Virus record (IMG/VR): IMGVR_UViG_3300032163_000052
Span: 1 to 38,248 of that record
From: a virus
Reading direction: 5' to 3' (one strand)
Length of the DNA: 38,248 nt
The translations under genes were made by a program, and so were the position numbers. Below, in pieces: positions 1 to 38,248 of the stretch. Below the pieces are notes generated by a model that saw nothing but the letters and a program-made list of their open reading frames with translations, made no database searches and was not told where the DNA came from. Positions within the stretch are counted from its first letter, which is position 1. Each line of letters starts with the position of its first letter.

Positions 1-127
1 ATTGCCCGTATCATCGGCCCGACAAAAGCGGCCATACCTGGCCTTCTCGCGGCGATTAAAAGCAGGGAGACCGAAGACTACGACGTCAAGACGATTCAAT
101 CGCCGTCAGCCCCGACTGTCCGTATCG
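1..127. repeat. Terminal direct repeat closing the genome
   Basis: Bases 1-127 are identical to 38122-38248. The repeat lies inside the portal coding sequence, and the reading frame continues through the join without a shift. A repeat of exactly 127 bases is what a short-read assembler with k=127 leaves at the ends of a circular or circularly permuted molecule. It is therefore best read as an assembly overlap rather than a biological terminal repeat. The unit genome is 38,121 bp. Confidence 0.93.
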
Positions 128-9960: not shown

Positions 9961-11226
9961 ATGGGACTGTTTAAGTTTATCAGCAATATCCTGGGCGACG
10001 TGAAGGACGCGGGAACACACCTGGCAAAACAGGTGCCCGTTGTCGGGCACCTGTTGAGCGAAGCTGTGGATATACCTTTAAGTTCCACACAGCATTTCAT
10101 TAAGAATCCGCTAAAAACCATAGCCAATGCAGCGTCCGGGGCGGCGGCGGGATTTGCAGCCGGGGGGCCGGTCGGTGCTTTTGCCGGAGGCGTTGCCGGG
10201 GCCGACATAAACCCCAATGAACGCTTTAAACCTTTAAAGGCAGCACTCAAAGGCGCGGAGTATGGCGGAGCGGCATCGCTTACAGGGCAGGGCATAAATT
10301 ACCTTGCGCCTGAGACGATACCGGCGACGTATATTACATCGCCCTTTTTATCAAAGCCAGGCCCGTCATCCGCCGTGAATAACGCAGGCAGTTCTTTCAT
10401 ACCGGACAATGTCAGTGAACTGTTTTCCAAGGGCGCGGACTATGCCGGGAGTACCGCAGGCAGTTCTTCCATACCGAACAATGGCAGTGGACTGTTTTCC
10501 GAGGGCGCGGACTATGCCGGGAGTAACGCAGGCGGTTCTTCAATGCTGGACAAGGCCAGTGGACTGTTTTCCAAGGGCGCGGACTATGCCGGGAGCCTGG
10601 CCTCCAAAAGTGCTGATTGGATTATGAAAAATCCCGCCAAGGCCGCCCTCCTGGGACTCACGGTAAAGAACGTATTGACGCCCGCCCCTAAGATTGACAC
10701 GGGTGCGGAGCCAACCGGGGGAGGACCGGCAGCAGCAGGCAATAAGGCCGCGCAGGATGCACTAACTGCGGCCAAGGCAAGGTGGGCGACTTCCAGTCAA
10801 ACGTTAGCGCAAGGGCCGGCGGCATTGACAGCAATGAATCCGTTCGGGATTCAAAAAACAATGGATACGGGCTACAACAATAAAAGCATAGCTGAAGTAC
10901 TGCAAGAAACAAGAAACCAGCCGTCGCCCCTGCCGGGCGCAACAACGACAAGCGCGGTCCCGGCCGCCCCTGAACCTGGCCGGACAGGCGGGACAACGCC
11001 TTTAAGCATGAGTAGTGCCCGGCAAGCTGTAGCACAAGAAGGCGGGATGCCGATGCCGGAGAGCGTGCAGCCGAATATGGAATCGGCGAGGACTGCTTAC
11101 ATGAGGGGCATTGCAAATATCCAGCCGCCCGGACAGCCAATGTCGAATCAAAACACGCAAAGCAGGATATTGACCCACGCCGACACGGAATATCTAGAAT
11201 ATCTACAGTCTCGCGGACTGATATAG
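9961..11226 (+). CDS. Ejection (injection) protein with three tandem repeats
   Basis: A 421-residue protein after GGGGGGC and ATG 9961. Residues 55-80 are a small-residue hydrophobic stretch (ASGAAAGFAAGGPVGAFAGG) suited to membrane insertion. Residues 142-213 hold three 24-residue repeats with the core FSKGADYAGS, encoded by a 72-bp tandem repeat. The C-terminal part is Pro/Thr/Ala-rich and ends in a helix. It is the first of three consecutive long, helical, low-complexity proteins after the tail genes, the position of the P22 gp7/gp20/gp16 or T7 internal proteins that enter the host with DNA. Assigned by order and composition. Confidence 0.6.
   Translation: MGLFKFISNILGDVKDAGTHLAKQVPVVGHLLSEAVDIPLSSTQHFIKNPLKTIANAASGAAAGFAAGGPVGAFAGGVAGADINPNERFKPLKAALKGAEYGGAASLTGQGINYLAPETIPATYITSPFLSKPGPSSAVNNAGSSFIPDNVSELFSKGADYAGSTAGSSSIPNNGSGLFSEGADYAGSNAGGSSMLDKASGLFSKGADYAGSLASKSADWIMKNPAKAALLGLTVKNVLTPAPKIDTGAEPTGGGPAAAGNKAAQDALTAAKARWATSSQTLAQGPAALTAMNPFGIQKTMDTGYNNKSIAEVLQETRNQPSPLPGATTTSAVPAAPEPGRTGGTTPLSMSSARQAVAQEGGMPMPESVQPNMESARTAYMRGIANIQPPGQPMSNQNTQSRILTHADTEYLEYLQSRGLI
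10384..10599 (+). repeat. Three tandem 72-bp repeats inside the ejection gene
   Basis: Three in-frame copies (10384-10455, 10456-10527, 10528-10599). The last half of each copy is nearly identical, and differences concentrate in the middle codons. Each codes 24 residues ending in GADYAGS. Being a multiple of three, copies can be gained or lost without breaking the gene. Confidence 0.9.
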
Positions 11227-31245: not shown

Positions 31246-31626
31246 CTATTCTTCCTTCCGCATAATGCCTATCTCGGAATTTTTCAAAATAAAATCTAGA
31301 TTGGATATTCTCCCTTTCAATGCCGGGTCGGACAGCCGGCACGTAAGCCGGAAAACCAATGCCTCGTCTCCCGCCTGCATCCGAATAAGCTTTCGGTTGC
31401 AAGCCACCTTCTTGATACTGTGCATGGCGTCTACCGCGACGCCGCTTATTATTTCAAGGGCGTCGCAGGTTTCCTGGTAGCCTATTGTGCTCTCAAATTT
31501 CCCGGCTGCCAACCACTTTTGCGCCTTCTCTGCGTCTATAAGAACGTACGAATACGTCCCTGGAGTCGTAATGACGGCCGAATTCAGGACATATCGCCTC
31601 GGCGATTTTCCATTCACTTCTTCCAT
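31246..31626 (-). CDS. DUF1874 (viral ring nuclease / AcrIII-1 family) protein with Tyr for His
   Basis: A 126-residue protein; I chose ATG 31626 because AAGGAGGT lies 8 bases upstream. Y-V-L-N-S-A-V-I-T, then F-E-S-T-I-G-Y-Q-E-T, N-R-K-L-I-R-M-x-x-G-D-E-A-L-V-F and R-L are the DUF1874 landmarks. Members such as SIRV1 gp29 cleave cyclic tetra-adenylate and block type III CRISPR immunity, using a His in the I-G-H motif; here that residue is Tyr50. Residues 64-74 are an extra loop before Asn77-Arg78. It could bind cyclic oligoadenylate without cutting it, or have lost the function. The start overlaps the 3' end of the peptidase gene. Confidence 0.78.
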   Translation of the reverse strand: MEEVNGKSPRRYVLNSAVITTPGTYSYVLIDAEKAQKWLAAGKFESTIGYQETCDALEIISGVAVDAMHSIKKVACNRKLIRMQAGDEALVFRLTCRLSDPALKGRISNLDFILKNSEIGIMRKEE

Positions 31627-32323
31627 GTGCGCCACCTCCTTCCTGTATTATTTTAACTGCGGCCTGCATAGTATAATGCAAGTCCTTCTCTATTAAATAT
31701 TCCGCCCGGGTGTGTTGATTGTAGTACCCGGCGGAGAGGTTGACTCCGACAATTCCCGTCTCTCGGCTCAATATTGAGATGTCGGAAAATGAACCGGGCT
31801 TTTCGCGGAACCCGAACCCCCCTATGAACGCTTTAAAGGCCGGGCTTTCACCGTTATAAAAGACCATCTCTCCCCTCTCCTTACGATCTATTTCCAGGAA
31901 AAAAACGACCTTCTTGAAATACGACCTGAAGATTTCTGCCGCCTCCCTTGCGCCACCTCCTCCGCACTCCTCATGGTCGGTCAAAAGCACCATGCATCCG
32001 GTTTGTCGGCGCAACTCCATGACAGCATAGACCCCGGCCCGGTCGTCTGCCCCAAGGCCCTCGGGGGACCAATAGACCTGTTTCTTAGTGTCATGGTAGA
32101 TTTTTTTATTACCTCGGGGAGCATGGCCATAAAAATCCCCGTAAAAATCACCGTCAAAAACGGTGTCCACATGTGCGACGAGACAGATATGCCGAGACTT
32201 ACACTTTTTTGTCGGCATCCATAGCCATGATTCCCGGCCCTGGTGGTCTGCTGTTGAGCAAGCCCGTTCAATAATATCCTGCTTGCCCATGGCAAGAACG
32301 GACGGTAATGCCCAGTTTGTCAT
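31493..32323 (-). CDS. Zinc peptidase of the M28/M42/M20 type
   Basis: A 276-residue protein from ATG 32323 with AAAGGAGGTG 4 bases upstream. Metal and catalytic motifs: H51-V-D53, G-A-D93-D94-R-A-G, D-H-E118-E119-C-G-G-G-G and F-L-E-I-D. These are the ligands of co-catalytic aminopeptidases or carboxypeptidases. Residues from about 230 lie in a tail that overlaps the DUF1874 start by 134 bases and may be dispensable. A cytosolic peptidase or amidohydrolase in a phage accessory block is uncommon; it could cut a host peptide, or an amide in a signalling or cell-wall molecule. Confidence 0.75.
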   Translation of the reverse strand: MTNWALPSVLAMGKQDIIERACSTADHQGRESWLWMPTKKCKSRHICLVAHVDTVFDGDFYGDFYGHAPRGNKKIYHDTKKQVYWSPEGLGADDRAGVYAVMELRRQTGCMVLLTDHEECGGGGAREAAEIFRSYFKKVVFFLEIDRKERGEMVFYNGESPAFKAFIGGFGFREKPGSFSDISILSRETGIVGVNLSAGYYNQHTRAEYLIEKDLHYTMQAAVKIIQEGGGAHGRSEWKIAEAICPEFGRHYDSRDVFVRSYRRREGAKVVGSREI

Positions 32324-32640
32324 AACACCTCCTTTCCAGCATTTGTTCACGCTCCGCTCACGCCTTCACGCGAGGGTATCAGCGGAGCGTGACTTTGCCC
32401 GCTGTTGGCGATGCGCCAACCATGAGGCGGAACCTTTGTCTTGCCGTCGGATAGTCCGCCTATTTAGCAGACAGCAAGCATTCGTCCTTTTCAGCCACGA
32501 TTTTAGCCGAGAAACAGTCTCAAGGGGGGACTGCCAATCGTGGAATAGTTGCGTTTCAGAAGAGACACGGATTTTCTCCATTGGCCCCCGCAGGGGCTAC
32601 TTCAGCGCATAGCATCACCTCCTTTGATACCCTGCAGAAC
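32324..32640 (-). ncRNA. Hairpin-rich non-coding stretch between RT and peptidase
   Basis: At least five inverted repeats occur in about 300 bases: 32347-32358 with 32381-32392 (12 bp perfect), 32404-32410 with 32414-32420 (7 bp, 3-base loop), 32425-32431 with 32455-32461 (7 bp), 32495-32502 with 32536-32543 (8 bp) enclosing 32515-32521 with 32527-32533 (7 bp), and a GCCCC/GGGGC hairpin near 32585-32598. No frame here has protein-like character. It is co-oriented with the RT gene just upstream, so it is a candidate RT-associated RNA or a structured leader of the peptidase gene. Confidence 0.5.
32602..32625 (-). promoter_or_regulatory. Strong ribosome site followed by a two-codon minigene
   Basis: On the minus strand AAAGGAGGTG (32625-32616) is followed, 7 bases after AGGAGG, by ATG CGC TGA (32610-32602). 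An ATG closer in (32615) opens a 19-codon frame but is only 2 bases from AGGAGG. Start-sense-stop minigenes with strong ribosome sites are known from lambda bar, where they trap tRNA. Confidence 0.4.
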
Positions 32641-32839
32641 TGATACGACCTACTTAGAAAAAAACCCCACATGCTATGTGACGAGCGAAAGGGTTTGACT
32701 TTCGACGACCTCGCAGCGGAGCGAGAATGGTGAGGAGAAACCAAACCCGAAGCGAGGATGTCTTCGTCAGCCGGTCGGAACGGCTCAGGCGTCGAAACAA
32801 CGCCCTCCTTTCCGGCATTCCATGTGAGTAGGGGGGCCA

Positions 32840-34195
32840 TTATCTGAGCCTCACCCTGTACGCCTTCGTTTTAGATTCCGAAAGCGTTACTGTTTCCACG
32901 TGCGCGTTGTCGAAAAACGGCAACGGACACGGCTGTCGAACATTGCCCGCAACCAACGCCCCCCGGCATTCGGTTGCGGGCACAAAACCCTGCTCGGAGA
33001 GCGCGACTGCCAACGCGTGTTCGTTCGGACCGTACATCCGATGGCCCGCCCCGCTGTATATGTCGCCGTAGGCTTTCCGCCCATCGCGCAGAGCATAAAT
33101 CAGACATCGAGCCTGCATTTTCGGCCGGCGGACCCCAGCCACTGTGGTCGTCCCCTCACCGGCTATGTATGCCAGCGCGCAGCCGGAAAGGCGCTGCCAA
33201 AAGGCGACGCCCTTCCGGTATGTGTGCGTGCTACGGGTGATGGACATACATGAGGTCCAGCCGGTCGTATATGCTGACATGCCGTAAATCATCGCCGGGT
33301 CGGTCGTAATGCAGACCGCGCTACCTAGGGCCTGATCGGGGATGACCTTACGCCCCGGCTGAGGGGCACGGAGATTGTATTCTGATGCGATTTTCTGAGC
33401 ATCGGAGATCCGGCCGGCAGCGGCGCGGTCGGCCTCGGTTTTTTCGACGGGCTGCTTGAGCAACGAAAACTCCAGGAGCCCGACAAATTTGCGCTCCAGC
33501 CGGGAGAGTTCTTTTTTGTCCGCGCCTGCTTTGGAGGCGCGGACATAATTATGCCGTGCCGCCCGGAGCTTGCGGGCCATGCGGCGGGGGATGTGGACCG
33601 ACTCGTCCACTGTGAGACCGCACACCTCGCGCCGACCTGCTGAGGAGCGCTGGATTCGGGTCTTTTTGTCGTTCATTTTGAAGCCACACCGGCAAACTAT
33701 TTGCCGGACCTCGGCTATGATTTTCTCCGCGGTGGCCTGATCGTCCACGTCGGATGAGATGCTGAGGTCGTCGGCATAGCGGGTATATACCCAGCCCGCT
33801 ATTTGCATTTTTTGAAGGCGCTTGCGGATCGCCTCGTCCAGCCCGGACGCCGCGAGATTTGCAATCGCCGGGGAAGTCGGCAGGCCCTGCCGCGCTGCGC
33901 CGCCCGGGAAGCATTTTTCGAGGCACACGGCAGGGATTTTCCCCATGACCATTGCGGGGACGACGGAATCGAAAAAATTAGATAAGTCAATAGATATTGT
34001 CATGTTTTTTTCAACATGAGGCGTCGCGTTGGTGACAATATTTCGGCCGGGCATGAAGCCGTGGGCGGATTTGAGCTGAACGAGAGGCTGCGCTATTGTC
34101 GAGAGTATTTGTCTCAATTCGCGCTTTTCCGCTCGGTCAGGAGCGTATATTGTTCGGACGCCGCCGGAGTGCTTGGGGACCGAAAAAACTTTCAT
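32840..34195 (-). CDS. Retron-type reverse transcriptase fused to an unknown C-terminal domain
   Basis: A 451-residue protein from ATG 34195. Residues 1-240 are an RT of the retron-like group: V-P-K-H-S-G-G-V-R-T-I at 6-16, N-A-T-P-H, I-D70-L-S-N-F-F, Q-G-L-P-T-S-P-A-I-A-N at 103-113, and catalytic Y140-A-D-D. The segment before motif 1 is short. It is not DGR-type (SP, not SQ, after the Q-G motif) and has no maturase or endonuclease part. Residues about 290-451 form a separate domain with W-T-S-C, K-M-Q-A-R-C-L-I-Y and R-M-Y-G motifs that I cannot name. Operators and a hairpin lie upstream, and a hairpin-rich region lies downstream. A phage retron or another RT defence/counter-defence unit is the likely class. 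Confidence 0.8.
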   Translation of the reverse strand: MKVFSVPKHSGGVRTIYAPDRAEKRELRQILSTIAQPLVQLKSAHGFMPGRNIVTNATPHVEKNMTISIDLSNFFDSVVPAMVMGKIPAVCLEKCFPGGAARQGLPTSPAIANLAASGLDEAIRKRLQKMQIAGWVYTRYADDLSISSDVDDQATAEKIIAEVRQIVCRCGFKMNDKKTRIQRSSAGRREVCGLTVDESVHIPRRMARKLRAARHNYVRASKAGADKKELSRLERKFVGLLEFSLLKQPVEKTEADRAAAGRISDAQKIASEYNLRAPQPGRKVIPDQALGSAVCITTDPAMIYGMSAYTTGWTSCMSITRSTHTYRKGVAFWQRLSGCALAYIAGEGTTTVAGVRRPKMQARCLIYALRDGRKAYGDIYSGAGHRMYGPNEHALAVALSEQGFVPATECRGALVAGNVRQPCPLPFFDNAHVETVTLSESKTKAYRVRLR

Positions 34196-34224: not shown

Positions 34225-34318
34225 TTTTCTCTTTTCTCCTCGCGAATCTATTTTATATAATGCAAGCCCCGTGCCAGGCAAAAAACATAGTAAAATCAAT
34301 ACTGCATATTCTGCATCA

Positions 34319-34448
34319 TGACAATATTTGTCACCGCAAATGCCTAAAAAATAGGCAAACAGTGAGTTATGCACAGCATTTTCCCTTGTAAATCAACGTA
34401 AATTAACAATGTGACATAATTTGTCACATTGGTGACAATAGTTGTCAC
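34319..34448. promoter_or_regulatory. Three GTGACAA-n3-TTGTCAC type operators
   Basis: Copies at 34319-34333 (TGACAA-TAT-TTGTCA), 34408-34430 (9-bp arms AATGTGACA) and 34432-34448 (GTGACAA-TAG-TTGTCAC). A half site recurs at about 34028-34036 inside the RT gene. The copies share arms but not spacers, as expected of binding sites for a dimeric repressor. The HTH protein at 27969-28220 or a host factor could bind. Confidence 0.65.
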
Positions 34449-34489
34449 ATTGAAACTTATGTCGCACCCTTCTGAAAACTGTTTACACC

Positions 34490-34541
34490 ACCACTAGATG
34501 TTGTAGTAACGCTCCGCGTTAGCAACTACCTGAATAGTGGT
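34490..34541. repeat. Compound hairpin upstream of the RT gene
   Basis: Outer arms ACCACTA (34490-34496) and TAGTGGT (34535-34541), a GTAG/CTAC segment, and a perfect inner TAACGC-TCC-GCGTTA hairpin (34507-34521). It could be an RNA hairpin on the RT transcript, but it is short for a retron msd. The outer arms recall the GTTAGTGG operator sequence. Confidence 0.5.
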
Positions 34542-34595
34542 CTATGCTTAAATCTCCCGGATTATTCTTTAAAATCAACGGCCCGGCATTTAAAA

Positions 34596-34701
34596 TGTTA
34601 GTGGTCACTAACAAAAGCCGCCAAATAAGGGTTTGCGGGTCGTTTGACAGTATTAGCCCTTACTCGTTGATATTTATCAAATGTTAGTGGTCACTAACAT
34701 T
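34596..34701. promoter_or_regulatory. Two TGTTAGTG-GT-CACTAACA operators flanking a promoter-like sequence
   Basis: Copies at 34596-34613 (8-bp arms) and 34680-34701 (10-bp arms), 84 bases apart, both with the same GT centre. TTGACA at 34644-34649 with TTGATA 17 bases later lies between them. The arrangement suits repression by looping between two sites about eight helical turns apart. Confidence 0.65.
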
Positions 34702-35037: not shown

Positions 35038-35367
35038 ATGGCACGCGGAAACCCGGACATAAGCAAGTTCGCAAAAGGCAGGCCCAAGGGGTCCAGAAAC
35101 GTTAGGAAGTCTTTTGATGAACTCATACTGACCGCGGTGCGCCGGCTGTTTCCGAATGACGGCAGTGTGACGCAGTTCATCGACCTTCTCGCGGAGGACC
35201 CGAAGAAGGGGAAGGTCTATAAGCTGGAATTACTGAAGGCTGCGGCGAAGATTGAGCGGGATAAGCTGGACCGCGAAGGAAGGCAGATGCGGTTTCCCTT
35301 TACCGTGCCTGCCAATGATCCGGTAGATGTAAGGGTCGAGTTTGTGAGGGCGGTTAATGGAAAGTAG
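35038..35367 (+). CDS. Terminase small subunit-like protein
   Basis: A 109-residue protein from ATG 35038. The basic N terminus with K-G-R-P-K-G-S-R-N is common in phage proteins encoded just before the large terminase. A helical middle (FDELILTAVRRLF, QFIDLLAEDPKK, LELLKAAAKIERDKL) suits an oligomeric DNA-recognition subunit. The 3' end overlaps the large subunit gene by 11 bases. No convincing ribosome site precedes the start, so translation may be weak. Confidence 0.68.
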   Translation: MARGNPDISKFAKGRPKGSRNVRKSFDELILTAVRRLFPNDGSVTQFIDLLAEDPKKGKVYKLELLKAAAKIERDKLDREGRQMRFPFTVPANDPVDVRVEFVRAVNGK

Positions 35368-36667: not shown

Positions 36668-38248
36668 ACGCGGAAGTCACAAATCTAGCCTGGACGGATA
36701 CGCCGGAGGCGGCGAGGACGGAATCAGCACTCGCGCAGTTGGTAAACGACTTCTACCGGGACGATATGGATTACCACCAGGAGTTCATAGCGAGCGTCCG
36801 GGAGACCTGGGGGTTTTACGACGGGTCCCGTCAGTGGTTCGAGCGGCACCCGGTGGACAATTCATGGATAGACAAGGCAGCGGCGAGGCGGAAGGCGGGG
36901 CTACCGGTGGAACAAATCAACCTGGTGTTCCCGATAGTCAACTTAGTGTGCGGTATCCAGGCGCAGGAGCCGCTCGAAACGTCGTTCCTGCCCAGGACGG
37001 AGGAAGACTCTCAGATAGCCGAGGCGAAGACTGAGGTTATACGGTTCATCCATGAACGGGCCTCCGGAGCGCGGCGCATATCACAGGCGTTCAAGAGCAC
37101 GGCAGTAACGGGGCGGGGCTGGATAGGCGTGGAGCAGGTCGAGGACGAAGCTACGATGTTTGGAACCAGGACAGCGCTCACGTCGCTGGACGCCGACGAG
37201 ATTCTATACGACCGGAGGAGCAAGGAGCACGATCTGACGGACTGTGATCACTTGTTGAGGTTCAGAACGATGTCCATGAGCGACGCCGTGGCCCTATGGC
37301 CGGACAAGGCGGCGGAACTCAGGTCCTATTTTACCGATATGGACAACGGATTCAGCGCCAGGGTGGACAACGGCGGCAGTCTCGGGACGATGGGACGGCA
37401 GGCGCATATTGTGGAGTGCTACTACCGGGTGCTTCAACTTAAAACGTTTGTTATTGATCCGCAATCGGGCATGGTGCATGACGTGTCGGACCTACCGCCC
37501 GAGCAATTGGGCCTCATTATCATGCTGAATCCCGAGACAAAGCCGATCCGAAAGCGCGTCAAGGTCATGAAGTTTGTCCGGACGTGCGGTACAAGCAGAG
37601 GCGTAGTGCTGGACAGCGGTAACTCGCCGTATGACGACAACTATTATCCGTATGTGCCCTTCTGGGCGTACCGCTCGCGGGACAAGGATTTTGGGGTGGT
37701 AGACCAGATCATGGAGCCGCAGCGGGCGGTAAACAAACGGGAAAGCTCTATACAGGAGTGGCTCGGCAAGGCCCCGCGGATGCGGGTGATAACCTCCAGC
37801 GCGGAGGACGCCGCCACGTTCAGGTCCGAGGACGAAATAGCGGTGCTCACCGGACAGTTCCAGGTAGTCCAGCCTCCGGCGTTTCCGGCCTCATACGCCA
37901 ATTTAAGTAATCAGCGGCGTGAAGATGTGAAACGTGTGTCGGGCATTTCAGATGATCTCCAGGGCATCAGACAGGCGAACGAGCCGGGCATAGTGGTAGG
38001 CCTCAGGCAGAAGCAGGGCATGGCTATGATCGCCTCGTTGTTTGACCAGCTTCAGGATTCCCACGAGTTGTTGACCAAAATCGAGCACAGCCGGATGAGG
38101 CAATTCATGCCGGAAAGCGAAATTGCCCGTATCATCGGCCCGACAAAAGCGGCCATACCTGGCCTTCTCGCGGCGATTAAAAGCAGGGAGACCGAAGACT
38201 ACGACGTCAAGACGATTCAATCGCCGTCAGCCCCGACTGTCCGTATCG
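36664..38248 (+). CDS. Portal protein, P22-like (N-terminal part; continues at 1-375)
   Basis: ATG 36664 overlaps the terL stop. The frame is open to the end of the window and continues at base 1, giving 610 residues. The WGFYDGSRQWFE segment, NLVFPIVNLVCGIQAQEP, the TAVTGRGWIGVEQV block and the long C-terminal helix (GLRQKQGMAMIASLFDQLQDS) are typical of P22-type portals. Twelve copies would form the ring at one capsid vertex through which DNA passes, binding terminase first and the connector afterwards. Confidence 0.9.
   Translation, partial: MNAEVTNLAWTDTPEAARTESALAQLVNDFYRDDMDYHQEFIASVRETWGFYDGSRQWFERHPVDNSWIDKAAARRKAGLPVEQINLVFPIVNLVCGIQAQEPLETSFLPRTEEDSQIAEAKTEVIRFIHERASGARRISQAFKSTAVTGRGWIGVEQVEDEATMFGTRTALTSLDADEILYDRRSKEHDLTDCDHLLRFRTMSMSDAVALWPDKAAELRSYFTDMDNGFSARVDNGGSLGTMGRQAHIVECYYRVLQLKTFVIDPQSGMVHDVSDLPPEQLGLIIMLNPETKPIRKRVKVMKFVRTCGTSRGVVLDSGNSPYDDNYYPYVPFWAYRSRDKDFGVVDQIMEPQRAVNKRESSIQEWLGKAPRMRVITSSAEDAATFRSEDEIAVLTGQFQVVQPPAFPASYANLSNQRREDVKRVSGISDDLQGIRQANEPGIVVGLRQKQGMAMIASLFDQLQDSHELLTKIEHSRMRQFMPESEIARIIGPTKAAIPGLLAAIKSRETEDYDVKTIQSPSAPTVRI

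What the first reader, a model, noticed from the sequence alone, without database searches (positions are those of the whole stretch)
32840..34195. Retron-type RT fused to an unrecognised domain in a phage accessory block
Residues 1-240 are an RT with intact YADD. Residues about 290-451 form a distinct domain with W-T-S-C, R-C-L-I-Y and R-M-Y-G motifs. The RT is flanked by a hairpin upstream and a 300-base hairpin-rich stretch downstream, and followed by a zinc peptidase and a DUF1874 protein. This could be a phage-borne retron-like or other RT system.
Basis: partly seen in the sequence, partly recalled or inferred. Interest (0 to 1): 0.78.

Follow-up and report, generated by a model that had tools for sequence, protein, structure and literature searches.

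The report
Phage retron fused to unknown domain
A small phage carries a gene that joins a retron-type reverse transcriptase, from a distinct branch found mainly in phages, to a domain of unknown function otherwise seen in very large phages; it may be a one-gene defence or counter-defence device with a DNA-making RNA next to it.

Summary
In detail: one intact 451-aa ORF at 34195-32840 (-), with an RT (residues 1-250, YADD, retron motifs NATPH and VCG) and a separate C-terminal domain. The RT is retron-type: the top 18 PDB fold matches are retron RTs. It belongs to none of the PADLOC retron types it was scored against. It sits in a fully supported clade of 24 compact RTs, 20 from IMG/VR viral contigs and 4 from bacterial contigs. 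Several clade members carry clear retron ncRNA anatomy: long a1/a2 repeats with an AGC branch motif, a small stem-loop and a long hairpin. In the window itself a similar arrangement is predicted upstream (34549-34283), but DNA palindromes that look like repressor operators blur the signal. The C-terminal domain recurs after two other clade RTs (L026, L027) and is homologous to an unannotated family of large-phage proteins. Its predicted fold gives weak GNAT-type and PcfJ-like matches. Best reading: a single-gene phage retron whose fused domain is the effector; msDNA and effector activity are untested. The downstream hairpin-rich stretch is not shown to belong.

The parts
33446..34195 (-). Compact retron-type RT domain (residues 1-250): NATPH, QGLPTSP, YADD, VCGLTV, thumb ending in GLLEFSLLKQP; no N-terminal extension and a shortened stretch between motifs A and B
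   Evidence: AlphaFold2 block-mean pLDDT about 70-97 for this part (91); top PDB fold matches are retron RTs (113)
32984..33325 (-). C-terminal domain core (residues 291-404; WTSCM, ARCLIY, RMYG), homologous to an unannotated family of large-phage proteins
   Evidence: hhalign probability 97, E 2.8e-11; no Pfam or PDB sequence match (16, 17, 98, 99)
32840..34195 (-). Whole RT-CTD gene, 451 aa; the ATG overlaps the stop of a short upstream frame (ATGA)
34283..34549 (-). Candidate msr-msd ncRNA: a1 AAGCATAG (34549-34542) pairs with a2 CTATGTTT (34290-34283), pair probabilities 0.84-0.97; a1 ends in UAG; contains a stem-loop with a 3-nt loop (34522-34507) and a long hairpin (about 34453-34407)
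   Evidence: prediction only. An ungapped a1/a2 search was not significant (P 0.16)
34407..34452 (.). Two of three TGACA-N5-TGTCA palindromes (third at 34319-34334): operator-like, also the core of the predicted long hairpin
   Evidence: nowhere else in the record
34593..34699 (.). Two identical palindromes AAATGTTAGTGGTCACTAACA (34593-34613, 34679-34699): operator-like sites between the RT gene and the oppositely directed gene at 35038
32351..32839 (-). Hairpin-rich stretch downstream of the RT, mild folding excess; role and membership unproven
   Evidence: no Rfam family

Best explanation
This is a single-gene retron carried by a phage. The RT reverse-transcribes part of an RNA encoded just upstream into a branched RNA-DNA (msDNA) that stays bound to the RT. 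The fused C-terminal domain is the effector: held inactive by the RT-msDNA complex and released or activated when a competing phage or a host nuclease disturbs it, most likely serving a resident prophage as superinfection exclusion. Shown by computation: the RT is retron-type, in a distinct, mainly viral clade; clade relatives carry retron ncRNAs; the fused domain occurs with this RT in three different phages. Inferred: msDNA production in this phage, the exact ncRNA, that the domain is an enzyme or toxin, and the trigger.
For: Retron motifs, and retron RTs as the top 18 PDB fold matches. Clade of 24 RTs with support 100/100 (again 100/100 against outgroups). Retron-style RNA next to the RT in relatives: inverted repeats of 22-37 nt (z 4.5 to 14.8) in L107 (upstream) and L187, L191, L192 (downstream), with the AGC branch motif at the end of a1 in L107 and L187; small stem-loops and long hairpins in L026, L027, L028, L106 and L187. 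Upstream regions of 23 clade RTs fold more stably than those of 99 control genes (Mann-Whitney p 0.0006). The window has a long-range a1/a2-like helix ending in UAG (pair probabilities 0.84-0.97) and a 3-nt-loop stem-loop. RT fused to the same domain in L026 and L027. Fused effectors are an established retron design (RT-Toprim, RT-TIR and RT-protease entries).
Against: The ncRNA in the window is not proven: the strongest ungapped inverted repeat is not significant (P 0.16), operator-like palindromes inflate the folding score, and no relative is close enough for a covariation test. In L034/L035 the upstream gene runs into the RT start, leaving no upstream room for an ncRNA. The CTD-bearing RTs do not group together in the tree, although one origin is not rejected (p-AU 0.228). 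The effector role of the domain is inference; its activity is unknown.
Confidence: 0.5

Rival explanations
1. The RT makes msDNA, but for the phage's own use: the single-stranded product or the RT-CTD complex is a decoy or inhibitor against host defences (counter-defence), and the CTD is a binding or modifying domain rather than an abortive-infection toxin.
For: The clade comes mainly from viral contigs of 24-170 kb and its members share no neighbouring effector gene. The CTD family occurs as a normal gene in many large phages. The neighbouring DUF1874 gene belongs to a family known, from my own knowledge, for AcrIII-1 anti-CRISPRs.
Against: Fused or adjacent effectors in characterised retrons serve abortive defence. 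Nothing here shows expression during lytic growth.
Confidence: 0.27
2. The RT uses another template (de novo synthesis, own mRNA or a DRT-like RNA) and no msr-msd exists in this phage; the upstream palindromes are only repressor operators.
For: Operator-like palindromes explain much of the folding excess. The ungapped a1/a2 search is not significant in the window. L034/L035 have no upstream room.
Against: NAxxH and VTG-like motifs, retron-first fold matches, and retron ncRNAs in the same clade.
Confidence: 0.15
3. A diversity-generating retroelement or a group II intron remnant.
For: It is an RT in a phage with structured flanking DNA.
Against: No template/variable repeat pair in the whole record; group II models score far lower than retron models; no Rfam hit; no DGR-type target or Avd-like gene noticed.
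Confidence: 0.02

Closest known systems
Retrons with RT-fused effectors (PADLOC RT-Toprim I-C, RT-Protease XI, RT-TIR XII; Ec67/Eco2)
   Same: RT with retron motifs followed in one polypeptide by a second domain; retron RTs are the nearest folds
   Different: RT lacks the N-terminal extension and about 18 residues between motifs A and B, falls in a separate clade, and the fused domain is unrelated by sequence to Toprim, protease or TIR
Retron type XIII (PADLOC RT_XIII)
   Same: Best single PADLOC profile for the window RT (185 bits)
   Different: RTs that score 453-637 bits on this profile (L147, L124, L137) group in the other half of the tree and carry a long N-terminal part; the other clade members tested score only 137-155 bits on it
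Unannotated large-phage family (Alexandravirus, Salmondvirus, Lu11, Atu_ph07 proteins; phrog_17056 weakly)
   Same: The CTD is homologous to their WTSCM-containing core
   Different: In large phages it follows a conserved stretch of about 100 aa and precedes variable C-terminal parts; there is no RT, and the H and YD of the HPYDIAGMST motif are replaced in the window
PcfJ-like proteins (PF14284) and the GNAT fold
   Same: Collinear weak profile match to PcfJ (E 0.0006 with 3 sequences, 0.004 with 9; controls no better than 0.03); the leading PDB matches of the family model are GNAT-fold enzymes
   Different: Scores are below the level that shows kinship (Z 6.8 at best; probability 29 at most); the window CTD alone gives no PcfJ match

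Membership tests
Retron | RT of the retron lineage (NAxxH, VTG, YxDD) | tested here: met
   NATPH, VCGLTV, YADD; retron RTs are the top 18 PDB fold matches; retron profiles lead PADLOC and NCBIfam
Retron | Adjacent msr-msd RNA with a1/a2 repeats and a branch G | tested here: inconclusive
   Window: predicted 8-bp a1/a2 helix ending in UAG plus stem-loop, confounded by palindromes and not significant in an ungapped search. Significant repeats in clade members L107, L187, L191, L192
Retron | Effector gene or fused effector domain | tested here: inconclusive
   A fused domain is present and recurs, but its activity is unknown
Retron | msDNA product | not testable with these tools
   Needs expression and nucleic-acid isolation
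PADLOC retron type XIII | Strong full-length match to RT_XIII, including the N-terminal region | tested here: not met
   185 bits for the window in partial matches, against 453-637 bits for members grouping outside the clade
Diversity-generating retroelement | TR/VR repeat pair | tested here: not met
   No such repeat in the 38-kb record
GNAT acetyltransferase (C-terminal domain) | GNAT fold with an acetyl-CoA-binding loop | tested here: inconclusive
   Family model pLDDT 90.5; best Z 6.8 to Hat1, leading rows are GNAT-fold. The window CTD itself was not modelled confidently
PcfJ-like (C-terminal domain) | Profile match to PcfJ | tested here: inconclusive
   Family A6 versus PcfJ E 0.0006-0.004, controls no better than 0.03; the CTD alone does not match

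The most novel reading that the evidence does not exclude
A new retron class specific to phages: a compact RT lineage, with ncRNA on either side, that has joined a previously undescribed large-phage domain as effector, forming a one-gene weapon in phage-phage or phage-host conflict.
Probability: 0.38. Interest if true: 0.8.

Novelty: new variant of a known kind. Interest (0 to 1): 0.62.

Why it matters
Retrons are known mainly as bacterial defence systems that kill or arrest phage-infected cells. A phage lineage with its own compact retron RTs, one branch of which carries a domain otherwise kept by very large phages, would show phages using retron chemistry for their own ends. It would also give a first functional handle on a widespread unannotated protein family of large phages, and small RTs may be useful for making DNA in cells.

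Tried and rejected
Single-sequence searches of IMG/VR and GTDB with the RT or CTD found no relatives. A profile of all CTD rows had no stretch conserved enough to scan with. A DNA pattern for MSxxxGWTSCM gave two chance hits. The terminase search gave relatives but no host. Rfam found nothing in the window, even permissively, and no retron RNA in relatives. DGR rejected: no TR/VR pair. Type XIII membership rejected. A nested-hairpin descriptor hit the operator palindromes in the window and gave mixed results across loci. Comparing upstream with downstream folding in the clade was not significant (p 0.19); upstream against control genes was. AlphaFold2 on the full protein left the CTD unresolved. 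A shared effector neighbour was sought in 13 related loci and not found. No paper describing such a phage retron clade was found in the open library, which holds only part of the literature.

Full report
Observation. The ORF at 34195-32840 (-) is intact, 451 aa, in a 38,248-base IMG/VR record. The first and last 127 bases are identical, which suggests a complete, circular or circularly permuted genome of about 38.1 kb. The RT gene, a peptidase-like gene (31493-32323) and a DUF1874/STIV B116-like gene (31246-31635) lie on the minus strand, between plus-strand genes that include the terminase large subunit.

The RT. Residues 1-250 carry the RT core. Pfam RVT_1 matches at 3.6e-19. In PADLOC many retron RT profiles match; RT_XIII is best at 185 bits, while RTs that score 453-637 bits on that profile group outside the window's clade. 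Other clade members score about 140-155 bits almost equally on types II, III, XI and XIII, so the clade belongs to no PADLOC type tested. In the AlphaFold2 model the RT part is confident (block-mean pLDDT about 70-97) and the C-terminal part is not. The top 18 PDB fold matches are retron RTs, followed by group II intron RTs and other bacterial RTs. Compared with ordinary retron RTs it starts directly at the first finger strand and lacks about 18 residues between motifs A and B.

A mainly viral clade. An alignment-based scan of IMG/VR found close relatives, and one of GTDB found four more, in Helicobacteraceae, Methylococcales, Ursidibacter and Psychrobacter contigs. The tree puts the window and 23 others in one clade (100/100), on a long branch away from ordinary retron RTs. 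A reduced tree agrees, with the window branching first in the clade when rooted on the outgroups. No neighbouring gene is shared around the 13 loci compared.

RNA next to the RT. In several clade members the retron layout is plain. L107 has a 23-nt a1/a2 pair upstream whose a1 ends in TTTTTAGC (z 4.5). L187, L191 and L192 have 22-37-nt a1/a2 pairs just downstream of the RT (z 7.4, 10.2, 14.8); the L187 a1 is followed by GC to give UAGC, and a second similar unit follows. Small stem-loops of the type GGCG-UUU-CGCC and long hairpins occur in L026, L027, L028, L106 and L187. Taken together, the 300 nt upstream of 23 clade RTs fold more stably than those upstream of 99 control genes from the same loci (median best z -3.2 against -2.0, p 0.0006); downstream regions as a whole do not (p 0.11). 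L034/L035 have no upstream room. An upstream versus downstream comparison was not significant. In the window, 842 noncoding bases separate the RT from the oppositely directed gene at 35038. Sub-stretches fold with z -4.0 and -3.8. The predicted structure has a helix between 34549-34542 and 34290-34283 (pair probabilities 0.84-0.97), whose 5' arm ends in UAG, a stem-loop with a 3-nt loop at 34522-34507, and a long hairpin. The hairpin consists of TGACA-N5-TGTCA palindromes found only here, which also look like repressor operators, and an ungapped inverted-repeat test is not significant. The window's ncRNA is therefore a candidate, not a result.

The C-terminal domain. No Pfam or PDB sequence match. 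It recurs after the RT in L026 and L027. One origin of the fusion is not rejected (p-AU 0.228), though the three RTs do not group in the tree. A weak tblastn hit led to an unannotated family of proteins in large phages, widespread in IMG/VR. Profile comparison of the RT-fused domains with 54 family members gives 97% probability, E 2.8e-11 (an earlier comparison agrees). The family model (pLDDT 90.5) has no strong PDB match. The leading ones are GNAT-fold acetyltransferases and malonyl-CoA decarboxylase (Foldseek E 0.066 at best; Z 6.8 at best, below the level of 8 that would count). Several weak matches in the viral structure library are PcfJ-like, and PcfJ profiles align collinearly with the family at E 0.0006-0.004, better than column-shuffled controls. 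I treat GNAT-like or PcfJ-like as a lead only. The large-phage motif HPYDIAGMST loses its H and YD in the window copy, so shared chemistry should not be assumed.

Mechanism. The simplest reading is a one-gene retron: RT, RNA and a fused effector, by analogy with RT-Toprim, RT-TIR and RT-protease retrons. Retron, phage clade and fusion are computed; msDNA, effector activity and trigger are inferred. The main rival keeps the retron but gives it a counter-defence role for the phage.

Novelty. I found no description of this clade or fusion in the open literature held here, which is incomplete. I file it as a new variant of a known kind.

Noticed in passing
window 1-127 and 38122-38248: Identical 127-bp ends: the record is probably a complete circular or circularly permuted genome of about 38.1 kb.
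   Followed up: partly
window 31246-31635 (-): DUF1874/STIV B116-like gene (also weakly Csx16). Aligned with AFV3-109, the IGHQAT motif reads IGYQET; the histidine that I recall as catalytic in AcrIII-1 ring nucleases is a tyrosine here.
   Followed up: partly
window 34319-34448 and 34593-34699: Two kinds of perfect palindromes, three and two copies, found only between the RT gene and the gene at 35038: likely operators of a phage regulator.
   Followed up: partly
window about 32605-32635 (-): A very strong ribosome-binding site (AAAGGAGGTGATGCT) in front of ATG-CGC-TGA, a two-residue frame, inside the hairpin-rich stretch.
   Followed up: no
window 32556-32840 (-): A 94-aa frame starts on the RT stop codon (TAATG overlap); coding or not is unknown.
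   Followed up: no
window 10372-10595: Tandem repeat of about 72 bp within a 421-aa ORF (9961-11226).
   Followed up: no
L187, about 0.25-0.42 kb after the RT: A second retron-like RNA follows the first in tandem.
   Followed up: no
L190 3782-4078: Group I intron downstream of the phage retron RT.
   Followed up: no
L193-L272: A large unannotated family of large-phage proteins: about 100 aa plus a WTSCM core, then highly variable C-terminal parts, sometimes in neighbouring copies.
   Followed up: partly
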